A stretch of DNA of 54,840 bases, from the NCBI RefSeq assembly GCF_000520595.1, contig NZ_KI915019.1, forward strand, positions 35,197 to 90,036, given 5' to 3'. Within the stretch, counting starts at the first letter, position 1. The number at the start of each line of letters is the position of its first letter. Positions 1,091-52,090 of the stretch are shown here, one piece after another. Made by a program: the position numbers and the translations under genes. The stretch comes from Arthrobacter sp. H5 (GTDB lineage Bacteria; Actinomycetota; Actinomycetes; Actinomycetales; Micrococcaceae). The notes under the pieces are model-generated. The model saw only the letters and a list, made by a program, of their open reading frames with translations. It ran no database searches and was not told where the DNA came from.

Positions 1091-2212
1091 ATGACTTCGC
1101 AGACAACACTTCTTCCCACCGTGCCCTACACCCTGACCCGCGCCGGCGTCATCATGGCGCCGGAAGAGGGCAACGACTTAGAGGCCGAGGGCGTACTCAA
1201 CCCGGCCAGCGGCCGGGGACCGGACGGCGAGCTGTACCTGCTGCCACGCCTCGTCGCCACCGGCAACGTCTCCCGCGTGGGCTTGGCAAAGGTGCTCATC
1301 GAGAACGGAGTTCCCACCGGCGTCGAACGCATGGGCGTGGTCCTGGGCCCCGATGAGGGCTGGGAACGCGGCAAAAACAACGCCGGCACCGAGGATCCGC
1401 GAACCACGTGGGTTCCGCCGCTGGGCAAGCATCTCATGACGTACGTGGCCTACGGTCCCATGGGGCCGCGGCTCGCCTTCGCCCACTCCGAGAACCTTCG
1501 CTCCTGGCAGCGGCTGGGCCCGTGCTTCTTCGAGTACAAGGCGTCCCTGTCCATGGACCTCAACCTGTTCCCCAACAAGGATGCTGTGTTCTTCCCGGAG
1601 CCGGTCAAGGATCCCGACGGCGTTCTCTCCTACGCCATGCTGCACCGGCCCATGTGGGATCTCGGGTGGATCCGCGAGGGCGAAGGTGAGCACCTGCCCG
1701 CAGGTGTGACGGACAACCGTCCCGGCATCTGGATCTCCTATGTGCCGGTTGAAGACGTTGAGCGCGACATCCGCAACCTGGTGCACATGGGTAAGCACAC
1801 CCTAGTGGCGCTCAGCGAGTTTGATTTTGAGGAACTGAAGATCGGCGGCGGACCCGCGCCCATCCGTGTCCCCGAGGGCTGGCTGCTGATCCACCATGGC
1901 GTGGCCGGCGCGCTGGAGAAGTCCGCGTTCGATCACCAGCAGAAGGTGCACTACACAGCCGCGGCAATGATTCTTGACGCTGACGATCCGTCAAAGGTCA
2001 TTGCCCGCAGCAGTTCACCGTTGCTTGCGCCCGAGACCGAGGACGAAAGGTCCGGCATTGTCCCGAATGTCGTCTTCCCGACGGCGATCGAGGAGATCGA
2101 CGGGCAACTGTTCGTGTTCTACGGAATGGCGGACTCGAAAATCGGCGTCGCCCGCCTGAATCGAACAAACTCAGACCGGACGTCCTTCGAAGCGACAGGA
2201 GCCGCATCATGA
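1091..2212 (+). CDS. GH130-family glycoside phosphorylase/hydrolase
   Basis: The 373-residue protein has no signal peptide, so it should act in the cytoplasm on sugars brought in by the upstream importer. It has the five-bladed-propeller signatures of GH130: EGVLNPAS at 33-40, NNAGTEDPR at 96-104, NKDAVFFPE at 162-170 and HRP at 185-187. Known GH130 enzymes mostly phosphorolyse or hydrolyse beta-mannosidic bonds (for example mannosylglucose or mannooligosaccharide phosphorylases). The precise linkage cannot be decided from sequence alone. It starts 6 bp after the permease stop and its last codons overlap the next start (ATGA), so translation of the two is probably coupled. Confidence 0.85.
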   Translation: MTSQTTLLPTVPYTLTRAGVIMAPEEGNDLEAEGVLNPASGRGPDGELYLLPRLVATGNVSRVGLAKVLIENGVPTGVERMGVVLGPDEGWERGKNNAGTEDPRTTWVPPLGKHLMTYVAYGPMGPRLAFAHSENLRSWQRLGPCFFEYKASLSMDLNLFPNKDAVFFPEPVKDPDGVLSYAMLHRPMWDLGWIREGEGEHLPAGVTDNRPGIWISYVPVEDVERDIRNLVHMGKHTLVALSEFDFEELKIGGGPAPIRVPEGWLLIHHGVAGALEKSAFDHQQKVHYTAAAMILDADDPSKVIARSSSPLLAPETEDERSGIVPNVVFPTAIEEIDGQLFVFYGMADSKIGVARLNRTNSDRTSFEATGAAS

Positions 2213-4329
2213 CCCCCCGCATCCACTCTCCCCAAAATGACGCTCTGAGGCCCAAAAACGTCCTGAAACGGTCCGTTTGGGGAGAGTCGATTGCTGTGGG
2301 GGCGGTTGCAGTCGCGTTGGCAACCACGTCGCTCGCGCCGGCAGCCGCTCAGCCCGTGGCGCCGGCCGCTCAACCCGCCGCCGTCGTCCCGGATGCCAGC
2401 GAGCCGCTCACCAATCTTGACCACCTGGACTTTCTCCTCGAAGAGGTTCCGGTGCCCGTGATCGACGGTCACAGCACCTACGGCGGCAAGGACCCGGCGC
2501 TGGCGCCTTGGACCTACGCGGACAGGAACGACGACGGCACGTACCGCCGGGTGGGCGGCGGCACCGAGGACCCGGCAACCGGTCACTGGAGCCAGGGCGC
2601 CTATAACGCCGATGACATTTCGCGGGCCGCCGTTGTCTACATCCGCCACTGGCAGCAGACGGGTGACGAGGGCAGTCGCGAGAACGCCTTCCAGACACTG
2701 CGTTCGCTGGCGTACTTGCAAACCACCGAGGGTCCCAACGCCGGCAACGTGGTGCTGTGGCAGCAGCCGGACGGCGAACTCAACCCGAGCGCCGAGCCGG
2801 TTGAACTGCCCGATCCCAGTGACTCGGCGGAGTCCTACTGGCTGGCGCGCACGGTGTGGGCGCTGGGCGAGGGGTACGCCGCGTTCCAGGAGGCCGATCC
2901 AACATTTGCTGGTTTCCTGCAGGACCGGCTCCATCTCTCGCTGGAGGCCATGAACCGGCAGTCGCTGGGCCGCTACGGCGAGTACGAGATTGCCGACGGC
3001 GTCCGCGTACCGGCGTGGCTGAACGCTTACGGTGCGGACTCCTCCGCCGAAGCGGTACTGGGACTCGCCGAATACGTTGAGGCCGAGCCGAAGGATGACG
3101 TGGCCCGGACAGCGCTCACGCAGCTCAGCGAGGGCATTGCCGAAATGTCGTCCGGCGACACGCAGGCCTGGCCCTTTGGCGCGATCCTGCCCTGGACCAA
3201 GTCCCAGACCTTCTGGCATGCGTGGGGTGGGATGGCGCCGGCAGCCGTCGCCGAAGCCTCGGTTGTGTTGGACCGTCCGGACCTTGCCGAAGCCGCCGTG
3301 AAGGACACCGCCCGGTTCACCCCGCAGCTGCTCGCCGCGGGCGGGCCGGACAACGCCTGGACACCCACACCGTCCGAGAAAGTGCAGATTGCGTACGGCG
3401 TGGACTCCCGGCTGCAAAGCCTTGTCGCGACGGCTGAGGCAACCGGCGCCGACGGGCTCCATGAGCTGGCCGCGGTGGTGGGCGGCTGGTACTTCGGCGC
3501 CAACCGCAGTGGCGAACCGACGTACAACCCGGCCACCGGCACCACCTTCGACGGTGTGCAGGCGGATGGAACGGTGAACCTTAATTCGGGTGCGGAATCG
3601 GCCATTCACGGGCTTCTCTCGATGCTCGTTCTGGACGCGAATCCTGATTTGAAGGAAGCGGCACTGGGCATCGATGAAACCGTGTCGACCACCGGCCTCG
3701 CCGTGGTCGAGGCGGAGACCGGAACCATCACCGGCAGCGGAACCGTTGTGACGCCGTCGTCCGCGTGGACAGGCGAGGCCAACTGGTCCGCCGGCGCCTA
3801 CGTAAGGCTCGACGACGGCGCGCGGCTCCGCGTGCCTGTGCCGGCATCGGATCAGGAGCGCAATGTCTATCCGATCGTCAATCGGTCCATTGAGGAATCC
3901 GGGATGACGCAATGGTCCGCCAAGCGGAAACTCGGCGAGACCCCCAACGGCGGCGCAGGGGCGCAGGGCATTACCGAGGCACCGGGTCTGCTCCAGCCAT
4001 TTACCCTCGATAAGACACTCAAGGCTAAGGACCGCTACGTGGAGGCGCGCGTAGACGGCGCCGCTTCCATCGACGCCCTGCTGGTGCAGCCGCTGATCTC
4101 CACGGTGACGGTTGATGGACCTGCGGGGGAGTCCACACTGTATGTCAGTGCGTCGGAGAAGAAGTCTGAATTCAAGGTCGATGTTCCGCGGGGCTACAAG
4201 CTGGTGCAGCAAGCCTTTGACGCCAACGGCCAAGAGGTAAGGGTGCCAGGCGGCAAGGGCTTTGCGCGCTCCGGCCAGGTCCACGTTACTCCAGGAGGAT
4301 TCACGGAAGTTTCCTTCGAGCGCAGCTAA
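2209..4329 (+). CDS. Secreted (alpha/alpha)-barrel-like glycan-active protein
   Basis: The 706-residue protein begins with an export signal: a basic stretch to about residue 28, a hydrophobic core around 29-43, then an AAA-Q-like cleavage region. Residues about 60-490 are helix-rich, with Trp/Tyr-rich motifs (AESYWLARTVWALGEG, QTFWHAWGG, GGWYFGANRSG, VNLNSGAESAIHGLL) that resemble (alpha/alpha)6-barrel glycosidases. Residues about 495-706 look like a beta-sandwich carbohydrate-binding or accessory module. I cannot assign a CAZy family or catalytic residues. It is the last gene of the operon, with an AGGAG site before the ATG and a 4-bp overlap with the GH130 gene. Much of its signal-peptide n-region is encoded by a palindromic repeat whose second copy lies right after the stop. 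Confidence 0.75.
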   Translation: MTPRIHSPQNDALRPKNVLKRSVWGESIAVGAVAVALATTSLAPAAAQPVAPAAQPAAVVPDASEPLTNLDHLDFLLEEVPVPVIDGHSTYGGKDPALAPWTYADRNDDGTYRRVGGGTEDPATGHWSQGAYNADDISRAAVVYIRHWQQTGDEGSRENAFQTLRSLAYLQTTEGPNAGNVVLWQQPDGELNPSAEPVELPDPSDSAESYWLARTVWALGEGYAAFQEADPTFAGFLQDRLHLSLEAMNRQSLGRYGEYEIADGVRVPAWLNAYGADSSAEAVLGLAEYVEAEPKDDVARTALTQLSEGIAEMSSGDTQAWPFGAILPWTKSQTFWHAWGGMAPAAVAEASVVLDRPDLAEAAVKDTARFTPQLLAAGGPDNAWTPTPSEKVQIAYGVDSRLQSLVATAEATGADGLHELAAVVGGWYFGANRSGEPTYNPATGTTFDGVQADGTVNLNSGAESAIHGLLSMLVLDANPDLKEAALGIDETVSTTGLAVVEAETGTITGSGTVVTPSSAWTGEANWSAGAYVRLDDGARLRVPVPASDQERNVYPIVNRSIEESGMTQWSAKRKLGETPNGGAGAQGITEAPGLLQPFTLDKTLKAKDRYVEARVDGAASIDALLVQPLISTVTVDGPAGESTLYVSASEKKSEFKVDVPRGYKLVQQAFDANGQEVRVPGGKGFARSGQVHVTPGGFTEVSFERS
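2221..2291. repeat. 71-bp palindromic repeat, copy 1, inside coding sequence
   Basis: The ends form a perfect 12-bp inverted repeat, ACTCTCCCCAAA (2225-2236) against TTTGGGGAGAGT (2276-2287), extended outward by ATC/GAT with one mismatch. The middle can also pair, giving one long hairpin with a small CCCAAAAACG loop. The element is read in frame as residues 5-28 of the secreted protein starting at 2209. By hand alignment it matches copy 2 at 61 of 71 positions with no gaps. It resembles REP- or MITE-like repeats. Its copy number in the genome is unknown. Confidence 0.85.
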
Positions 4330-4342
4330 CCGTCCCACCCAC

Positions 4343-4413
4343 ATCGACTCTCCTCAAACTGACGTTCTGGGACCCAAAAACGCCCTGAAAACGTCCATTT
4401 GGGGAGAGTCGAT
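4343..4413. repeat. 71-bp palindromic repeat, copy 2, intergenic
   Basis: This copy has the same length and orientation as the element at 2221-2291. The outer arms ATCGACTCTCC and GGAGAGTCGAT pair perfectly, and an inner GACGTT/AACGTC stem extends the hairpin. It starts 14 bp after the stop of the secreted-protein gene. It could act as a 3'-end hairpin for that operon, but no T-tract follows it, so a classical intrinsic terminator is not supported. Confidence 0.85.
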
Positions 4414-4550
4414 GGTGGTGGGGTGGTGACGTCGGTCGCCGAGTTCTGCGACTCGCCGTGTGACGTTCATCCCTTAGGTGGAATCGGTCTGCTTTGATGG
4501 ACGTTAATTGGATTGATAGCGATTACCGGCAGCTACCAAGAAAGTCAACA

Positions 4551-24619: not shown

Positions 24620-24644
24620 GGCTGACGCCTTTTTCGTACGCGAT

Positions 24645-24684
24645 CCGGAGATCCGTTAGCAGTATCCCGCTCACGGATCTCCGG
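24645..24684. repeat. Perfect 12-bp inverted repeat, possible weak terminator
   Basis: CCGGAGATCCGT (24645-24656) pairs perfectly with ACGGATCTCCGG (24673-24684) around a 16-nt loop, and TTTG follows. It lies 26 bp after the TauE-like stop and 87 bp before the next gene, so it may end that transcript. The U-tract is too short for certainty. The rest of this 151-bp gap shows nothing else clear. Confidence 0.5.
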
Positions 24685-24770
24685 TTTGCTGACGCGGATC
24701 CGGAACGCTCACGCAGGCTGCGCCGAGTCGCTCAGCCACCGGGGCTGCACCCAATGGCACCATTGAAGGG

Positions 24771-52030: not shown

Positions 52031-52090
52031 ATGGAGCAGACCAGTCCAGGGTGAGCGGAAAACTGCTCACCCCAGACTGGTCTGCTCCAT
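52031..52090. repeat. Long palindrome upstream of the AbiEi/DUF559-like gene
   Basis: Two 26-bp arms, beginning ATGGAGCAGACCAGTCC and ending GGACTGGTCTGCTCCAT-like, pair with two mismatches around GGAAAACT. There is no T-tract on either side, so it is not an ordinary terminator. GAGCAACCTGGAC at 52013-52025 just before it recurs at 53190-53202, beyond the gene. Confidence 0.75.

What the first reader, a model, noticed from the sequence alone, without database searches (positions are those of the whole stretch)
2221..4413. Palindromic repeat recruited into a signal peptide, with a twin after the stop codon
Two 71-bp copies, identical at 61 of 71 positions by hand, bracket a secreted-protein gene in the same orientation. 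The first is read in frame and supplies residues 5-28, the basic part of the signal peptide; the second starts 14 bp after the stop. Mobile-looking palindromes are usually intergenic, so exaptation into an export signal, or a structured mRNA at the translation start, would be unusual.
Basis: partly seen in the sequence, partly recalled or inferred. Interest (0 to 1): 0.72.

Follow-up and report, generated by a model that had tools for sequence, protein, structure and literature searches.

The report
Stop-codon palindrome inside a signal peptide
A short hairpin-forming DNA repeat that normally sits just after gene stop codons in this Arthrobacter-like genome lies, at one place, inside the start of a secreted-protein gene and probably is translated as part of its export signal, and in a related lineage a different hairpin family occupies the same two positions around the same gene.

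Summary
In detail: two 71-bp copies, 61/71 identical, same strand, one read in frame (residues 5-27/28), one 13 nt after the stop. They belong to a 34-copy interspersed family ("A") with near-constant 16-bp arms, found in 2 of 38 genomes of the genus (exact pattern: 2 of 395 of the family). The usual site is just 3' of a stop codon (28 of 34 within 35 nt or overlapping; 10% in a random-placement control). Copy 1 obeys this rule: it starts 8 nt after the stop of the upstream GH130-like gene, whose TGA overlaps the next gene's ATG, so the palindrome falls inside that gene. None of 26 orthologues shows the A-coded stretch (by eye). In G037 an unrelated family ("B") sits at the same two places; G035 has a B copy and a half copy there. 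Insertion is supported; recruitment for export is not shown, since orthologues without palindromes have basic n-regions of their own. No RAYT-type transposase was found in the 38 genomes. Translation and a 3'-end role are inferred. In-frame mobile palindromes, one forming part of a signal peptide, are published; occupation of the same two positions by two families is the unusual part, and it is not general across sites.

The parts
1091..2212 (+). GH130-like (mannoside phosphorylase family) gene whose stop codon precedes copy 1 by 8 nt
   Evidence: Pfam PF04041 E 5.4e-30; NCBIfam beta-1,2-mannobiose phosphorylase, far below its cut-off
2197..2201 (+). AGGAG, Shine-Dalgarno-like, 7 nt before ATG 2209
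   Evidence: read from sequence
2209..2212 (+). ATGA overlap: start of the secreted-protein gene (2209-2211) and stop of the GH130-like gene (2210-2212)
   Evidence: the same ATGA overlap with the in-frame GH130 stop in 5 orthologues (G015, G026, G028, G035, G037), not in Arthrobacter sp. H14
2221..2291 (+). palindrome family A, copy 1 (71 bp), read in frame as residues 5-27 plus two bases of codon 28
   Evidence: family of 34
2213..2301 (+). extended palindrome of copy 1 with C-rich left and G-rich right flank
   Evidence: 89-nt direct repeat with 4335-4423; fold
2290..2322 (+). hydrophobic core of the signal peptide (residues 28-38, IAVGAVAVALA)
   Evidence: Kyte-Doolittle scan; no signal-peptide predictor was run
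2296..2298 (+). GTG, possible alternative start just 3' of the element
   Evidence: read from sequence
2209..4329 (+). secreted-protein gene, 706 aa, no Pfam or NCBIfam hit at the thresholds used; similar to the exported protein of PDB 7tem
4343..4413 (+). palindrome family A, copy 2 (71 bp), 13 nt after the stop; palindrome extends over 4329-4427

Best explanation
Both copies belong to a genome-specific family of stop-codon-abutting palindromes (A). The palindrome spread by an unidentified route that is not RAYT, and is found just 3' of stop codons, often between convergent genes; its likeliest role there is a two-way 3'-end hairpin (terminator stand-in or mRNA 3'-end stabiliser). At the GH130/secreted-protein junction the stop and start overlap (ATGA), so the palindrome at its usual place falls inside the next ORF. 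There frame 1 is open and a signal-peptide n-region tolerates almost any basic sequence, so it is translated. SHOWN: family, placement, absence in orthologues, a different family (B) at the same two positions in G037 and, the second as a half copy, in G035. INFERRED: translation from ATG 2209, 3'-end function, and attenuation or stabilisation of the upstream mRNA that coupled translation would relieve.
For: 34 full copies of nearly constant length (one is 70 bp); over the 33 of 71 bp the arms match the consensus at 98%, the middle at 71%. A facing stop codon within 35 nt or inside the element: 28 of 34 A copies in G000, 17 of 20 in G013, 23 of 24 B copies in the G037 stretches fetched, against 608 of 5952 (10%) random wholly intergenic placements in the window. 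Copy 1 lies 8 nt after the upstream TGA. None of 26 distinct orthologues shows the A-coded stretch, by eye; five share the ATGA overlap. In G037 a B copy begins directly after the ATGA (C1:2640608-2640668) and another follows the stop (2642731-2642792); G035 has a B copy and a half copy there. Insertion seen: at site L028 four relatives have convergent genes overlapping by 4 bp where G000 has 5+71+9 nt between them. Stop displaced at L033: three relatives end in DHVRFL*, G000 runs into the element and ends ASTLPKMTV*. A is patchy: on an unrooted five-genome tree G013 lies with G031 and G037, apart from G000 and G028.
Against: No expression or N-terminal data. An open frame is weak evidence of coding: 28 of 34 A copies are open in frame 1 and 15 of 21 B copies in the frame used; between G035 and G037, 8 of 10 changed codons in the first 26 are nonsynonymous. 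My gene caller put the G037 start at the ATG just after the B copy, so the elements could be untranslated. No T-run follows the right arm in any of the 33 A copies checked, so they are not canonical intrinsic terminators. Relatives do not usually have a comparable hairpin at these sites: a stem of 16 or more pairs within 90 nt of the stop in 16 of 60 rows (1 of 180 shuffled). Covariation within G000 is weak: inner 14 pairs, score 22 of 500 and cells paired 89 of 500 shuffles as high; all 32 pairs, 62 of 500; with 13 G013 copies added 0 of 500, but two subtypes can inflate that. Co-occupation by A and B is not general.
Confidence: 0.66

Rival explanations
1. Purely selfish insertion (MITE-like): the palindromes have no 3'-end role and survive after stop codons and in a tolerant n-region only because they do no harm there.
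For: Patchy distribution (2 of 38 genus genomes), a different family in relatives, no conserved protein effect; orthologues do without; no T-run; most relatives show no comparable long hairpin at the sites (44 of 60 rows without a stem of 16 pairs).
Against: Arms 98% conserved while middles are 71% and only one near-identical pair (L036/L037), so no recent burst, yet the arms persist; 14 of 34 copies have stops within 35 nt on both sides.
Confidence: 0.35
2. The element is not translated: the real start is just 3' of the palindrome (GTG 2296 here; the ATG after the B copy in G035/G037), and the arm supplies a Shine-Dalgarno-like GGGGAG.
For: The gene caller chose that ATG in G037; GGGGAG lies 11 nt before GTG 2296; mostly nonsynonymous differences between G035 and G037 in this stretch.
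Against: The signal peptide would have no basic residue; ATG 2209 has AGGAG at 7-nt spacing; the ATGA overlap is shared by G015, G026 and G028, which have no palindrome there; G035 and G037 differ at 11 of the first 78 nt with no indel or stop.
Confidence: 0.2
3. Exaptation: the element is kept because its basic residues improve export.
For: Residues 14-21 carry R, K, K, R; n-region net +3 against +1 to +2 in five orthologues.
Against: Orthologues without palindromes have n-regions of net +2; frame 1 is open in 28 of 34 copies, so no adaptation is needed.
Confidence: 0.1
4. Local duplication of coding DNA around one gene.
For: Two similar copies bracket the gene.
Against: 34 copies genome-wide; copy 2 is closer to copy L030 elsewhere (89%) than to copy 1 (61 of 71).
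Confidence: 0.01

Closest known systems
Rickettsia palindromic elements (RPE)
   Same: Palindromic repeat families inserted in frame in protein genes (passages of PMC2229807, and PMC10969869).
   Different: RPEs are 105-150 bp and nearly half lie in ORFs; here 71 bp, mostly non-coding, tied to stop codons, in an actinobacterium.
YPAL/RU-2 element of Yersinia, locus YPO1552
   Same: A small mobile repeat partly forms a signal peptide: direct precedent (passage of PMC2229807).
   Different: 168 bp with a hydrophobic peptide; here the basic n-region is supplied, and placement follows an upstream stop codon.
REP/BIME elements (GTAG- and CGTC-tagged)
   Same: Mostly downstream of coding regions, between convergent or co-directional genes, sometimes providing a stop codon or lying inside ORFs (passages of PMC3733652); REP classes differ between strains and new ones may partly replace old (passages of PMC3686654).
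   Different: 20-40 bp units with a tag tetranucleotide, often with a RAYT; here 71 bp, symmetric ends, no Y1_Tnp match in 38 genomes.
DNA uptake sequences paired as terminators (Neisseriaceae dialects)
   Same: Lineage-specific motif as inverted pairs associated with terminators (passages of PMC3630211).
   Different: Hundreds to thousands of short motifs per genome (abstract of PMC2346458 in a listing); here 34 paired copies and two lone arms.

Membership tests
REP elements / RAYT system | RAYT (Y1_Tnp) in the genome | tested here: not met
   PF01797: 0 of 38 genus genomes at E 0.001, with 5 of 14 control genomes positive
REP elements / RAYT system | 20-40 bp palindrome with GTAG/CGTC-type tag at one end | tested here: not met
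   71-bp unit with symmetric ends ATCGAC...GTCGAT; definition from PMC3733652 passages
REP elements / RAYT system | preferred location downstream of genes, between convergent or co-directional genes | tested here: met
   28 of 34 within 35 nt of, or overlapping, a facing stop, 14 with stops on both sides
MITE | short, with terminal inverted repeats and no room for a transposase | tested here: met
   16-bp arms, 71 bp
MITE | target-site duplication | tested here: inconclusive
   no consistent direct repeat seen by eye next to the 71-mer in the 33 copies printed; relatives too distant to define empty sites exactly
MITE | autonomous element with the same ends | tested here: not met
   the exact TCGACTCTCCCC matches listed in G000 are arms of full copies except two lone arms; draft assembly of 104 contigs
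RPE-like coding palindromes | palindrome inserted in frame in a protein gene | tested here: met
   copy 1, and ORF L041 reading a whole copy in frame 1; translation itself not tested
Canonical intrinsic terminator | GC-rich hairpin followed by a T-run | tested here: not met
   0 of 33 A copies with 5 or more T in the 8 nt after the right arm, one orientation scored
Known Rfam RNA family | match at gathering score | tested here: not met
   0 matches in the window

The most novel reading that the evidence does not exclude
Lineages of this genus carry alternative 'dialects' of stop-codon hairpins (A, B and other families) that replace one another at some fixed gene ends by an unknown mechanism that is not RAYT; at overlapping stop/start junctions they are translated, giving signal peptides that are rewritten when the dialect changes and a translation-coupled attenuator between two genes.
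Probability: 0.2. Interest if true: 0.78.

Novelty: new variant of a known kind. Interest (0 to 1): 0.5.

Why it matters
It explains an odd coding palindrome by a simple rule (palindromes sit just after stops; overlapping genes turn that into coding) and gives a natural experiment: one gene bracketed at the same two positions by unrelated palindrome families in two lineages. If in-place switching holds, it is a way for bacterial 3' ends and protein N-termini to be rewritten together, by a mobility route other than RAYT.

Tried and rejected
Local duplication: rejected, 34 copies. RAYT mobilisation: no Y1_Tnp match in 38 genomes. Autonomous partner with the same ends: none seen in the draft. Known RNA family: none in the window. 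Wider host range: exact two-arm pattern in 2 of 395 family genomes and 0 stretches in genome contigs (that tool may leave out the own or very near genomes).

General re-occupation of A sites by B: not general. At 17 of the 34 A sites, 60 site-by-genome rows in two to four relatives each (G013, G031, G037, G028) show A in 2, B in 3, neither in 55. At 12 of the 20 G013 A sites, 20 stretches of G037/G031 show no A motif; one holds the 8-mer GTGTCCTG, inside an unrelated hairpin (L230), and none a B element. In the other direction, of 23 B-site queries from G037, 18 mapped in G000 (five at under 70% identity over the segment): A at 3, a lone A arm at 1, neither at 14; with the focal N-terminal site, 4 full and 1 half of 19. 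The binomial values (1.8e-5 and 0.0013) assume about 4000, or 1300, candidate gene ends, my estimates, and the focal pair is not independent. Shared A sites of G000 and G013: 5 of the 20 G013 copies, three of them the 60-bp variant in G013 and one (L046) among several paralogues.

The gene caller used for placement is my own simple script, not a published tool; the random-placement control allows only wholly intergenic placements, while real copies may overlap a gene end. The B list was cut, so the 24 B copies are those in the 19 G037 stretches fetched. Papers: passages only of PMC2229807, PMC10969869, PMC3733652, PMC3686654, PMC3630211, PMC12306157; PMC2759123 and PMC2346458 from listings only. 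No description of these Arthrobacter families was found by the searches.

Full report
OBSERVATION. The two 71-bp copies are real, same strand, 61 of 71 identical. Copy 1 (2221-2291) is read in frame by the ORF 2209-4329; copy 2 (4343-4413) follows the stop after 13 nt. Both fold far better than dinucleotide shuffles. C-rich and G-rich flanks extend the palindrome.

FAMILY A. The own genome holds 34 full copies (33, one more), one further weak model hit and two lone arms. Length is nearly constant (one copy is 70 bp). Over the 33 copies of 71 bp the 16-bp arms match the consensus at 98% and the middle at 71%; median pairwise identity is 79%, with one near-identical pair, L036/L037. So there is no recent burst, yet the ends are kept. 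Covariation is weak evidence: within G000 (33 copies) all 32 pairs reach a score matched by 62 of 500 shuffles and the inner 14 pairs one matched by 22 of 500, with cells paired matched by 89 of 500. With 13 of the 20 G013 copies added, and G000 copies L037 and L051 left out, it is 0 of 500, but two genome subtypes can produce this. A covariance model finds A in 2 of 38 genomes of the genus, G000 and G013; G013 has 20 places, four of them a 60-bp variant. The exact two-arm pattern is in 2 of 395 genomes of the family.

PLACEMENT. With a simple gene caller of my own, 28 of 34 A copies in G000, 17 of 20 in G013 and 23 of 24 B copies in the G037 stretches fetched have a stop codon of a gene running towards them within 35 nt or inside them; 608 of 5952 random wholly intergenic 71-bp placements in the window do. 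In G000, 14 of 34 have such stops on both sides, between convergent genes; 6 of 34 have none. Insertion is visible at site L028, where the two convergent genes overlap by 4 bp in all four relatives examined but are separated by 5+71+9 nt in G000. At L033 three relatives end in DHVRFL* while the G000 protein runs into the element and ends ASTLPKMTV*; two more predicted ORFs (L026, L047) carry similar element-coded residues at their ends, and predicted ORF L041 reads a whole copy in the same frame as copy 1.

WHY COPY 1 IS CODING. The GH130-like gene 1091-2212 ends in TGA at 2210-2212, which overlaps the ATG at 2209; copy 1 starts 8 nt after that stop, a usual distance. So the palindrome sits at its usual place and is coding because the next gene starts there. 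In this orientation 28 of 34 A copies are open in frame 1, so the open frame needs no adaptation, and by itself proves no translation.

ORTHOLOGUES. None shows the A-coded stretch, judged by eye. G015, G026, G028, G035 and G037 all have the ATGA overlap with the GH130 stop; H14 does not. G026 and G028 have short n-regions such as MSPRAARIP, and G015 a similar one. G035 and G037 have a 22-residue n-region whose DNA is a copy of another palindrome family, B.

FAMILY B. A B copy used as query (L136:876-945) matches 7 of 38 genus genomes and not G000. In G037 one copy lies at C1:2640608-2640668, directly after the ATGA, and another at 2642731-2642792, just after the stop of the same gene. G035 has the first and a half copy of the second. 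B arms (GCAGGACACGCCCC) and A arms (CTCTCCCCAAA) are unrelated, while the outermost bases resemble each other (A: GCATCGACT, B: GCGTTGAGT, read by eye).

IS THIS GENERAL? Only partly. Of 23 B-site queries from G037, 18 mapped in G000: A at 3, a lone A arm at 1, neither at 14; with the focal N-terminal site this is 4 full and 1 half of 19, above chance under my assumed numbers of gene ends, though the focal pair is not independent. In the other direction, at 17 of the 34 A sites in two to four relatives, 60 rows show A in 2, B in 3 and neither in 55. At 12 of 20 G013 A sites, 20 stretches of G037/G031 show neither an A motif nor a B element. Long hairpins of other sequence occur at some A sites in relatives (stem of 16 or more pairs within 90 nt of the stop in 16 of 60 rows, four of them the A or B rows, against 1 of 180 shuffled), but not at most. 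G000 and G013 share A or its 60-bp variant at 5 of the 20 G013 sites, one of these among paralogues. On 1436 aligned residues an unrooted tree puts G013 with G031 and G037 (88-89% identity), both B genomes, apart from G000 and G028, so A is patchy.

MECHANISM. Shown: interspersed family, stop-codon placement, presence against absence in orthologues, two families at the same two positions. Inferred: initiation at ATG 2209 (AGGAG at 7 nt; ATGA overlap in five orthologues), and a 3'-end function, which rests on placement and on arm conservation. A is not a canonical intrinsic terminator, as none of 33 copies is followed by a T-run in the orientation scored. Inside the operon the hairpin could stabilise the upstream mRNA or attenuate transcription unless coupled translation opens it; this is untested. 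Mobility is not by a RAYT of the own genome: no Y1_Tnp match in 38 genomes. A purely selfish element remains a serious rival.

KNOWN KINDS. Coding palindromes (RPE) and a signal peptide partly made by a mobile repeat (Yersinia YPO1552) are described (passages of PMC2229807). REPs downstream of genes, supplying stop codons or lying inside ORFs, are described (passages of PMC3733652). The present case is a new variant: a stop-abutting palindrome without RAYT, coding because of a gene overlap, with a different family in the same two places in a related lineage.

Noticed in passing
G000 C23:1607-1677 and C44:2554-2624 (L036, L037): Two copies of A share the same left flank (3' end of a gene resembling pyruvate dehydrogenase E1, name recalled) and differ at one base of 71: a duplicated segment or an assembly effect.
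   Followed up: partly
L120 and L235 (G031): Another palindrome, ATCGAnCGGGCGGAAATAAC, after stop codons at two sites where G000 or G013 has A.
   Followed up: no
L186, L190 (G000 gene ends): A further palindromic repeat around TTGGTCGACCACCGG / CCGGTGATCGACCAA in G000, with outer arms GTCTCCACGC / GCGTGGAGA.
   Followed up: partly
L116 (G013): A B-like palindrome whose outermost bases are A-like (ATCGA...TCGATGC), as if outer and inner stems were exchanged between families.
   Followed up: no
G013 loci L213, L214, L216, L217: A 60-bp relative of A (ATCGACTCTCCAATAGGTGACC); three of the four lie at sites where G000 has a 71-bp A copy (L045, L046, L048), L046 with paralogues.
   Followed up: partly
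window 24635-24694 and 52031-52090: Two other hairpins of 26-nt arms and 8-nt loop in the window; not compared with the genome.
   Followed up: no
window 2209-4329: The secreted protein has no Pfam or NCBIfam hit but matches an exported protein of known structure, PDB 7tem (phmmer E 2.8e-28).
   Followed up: no
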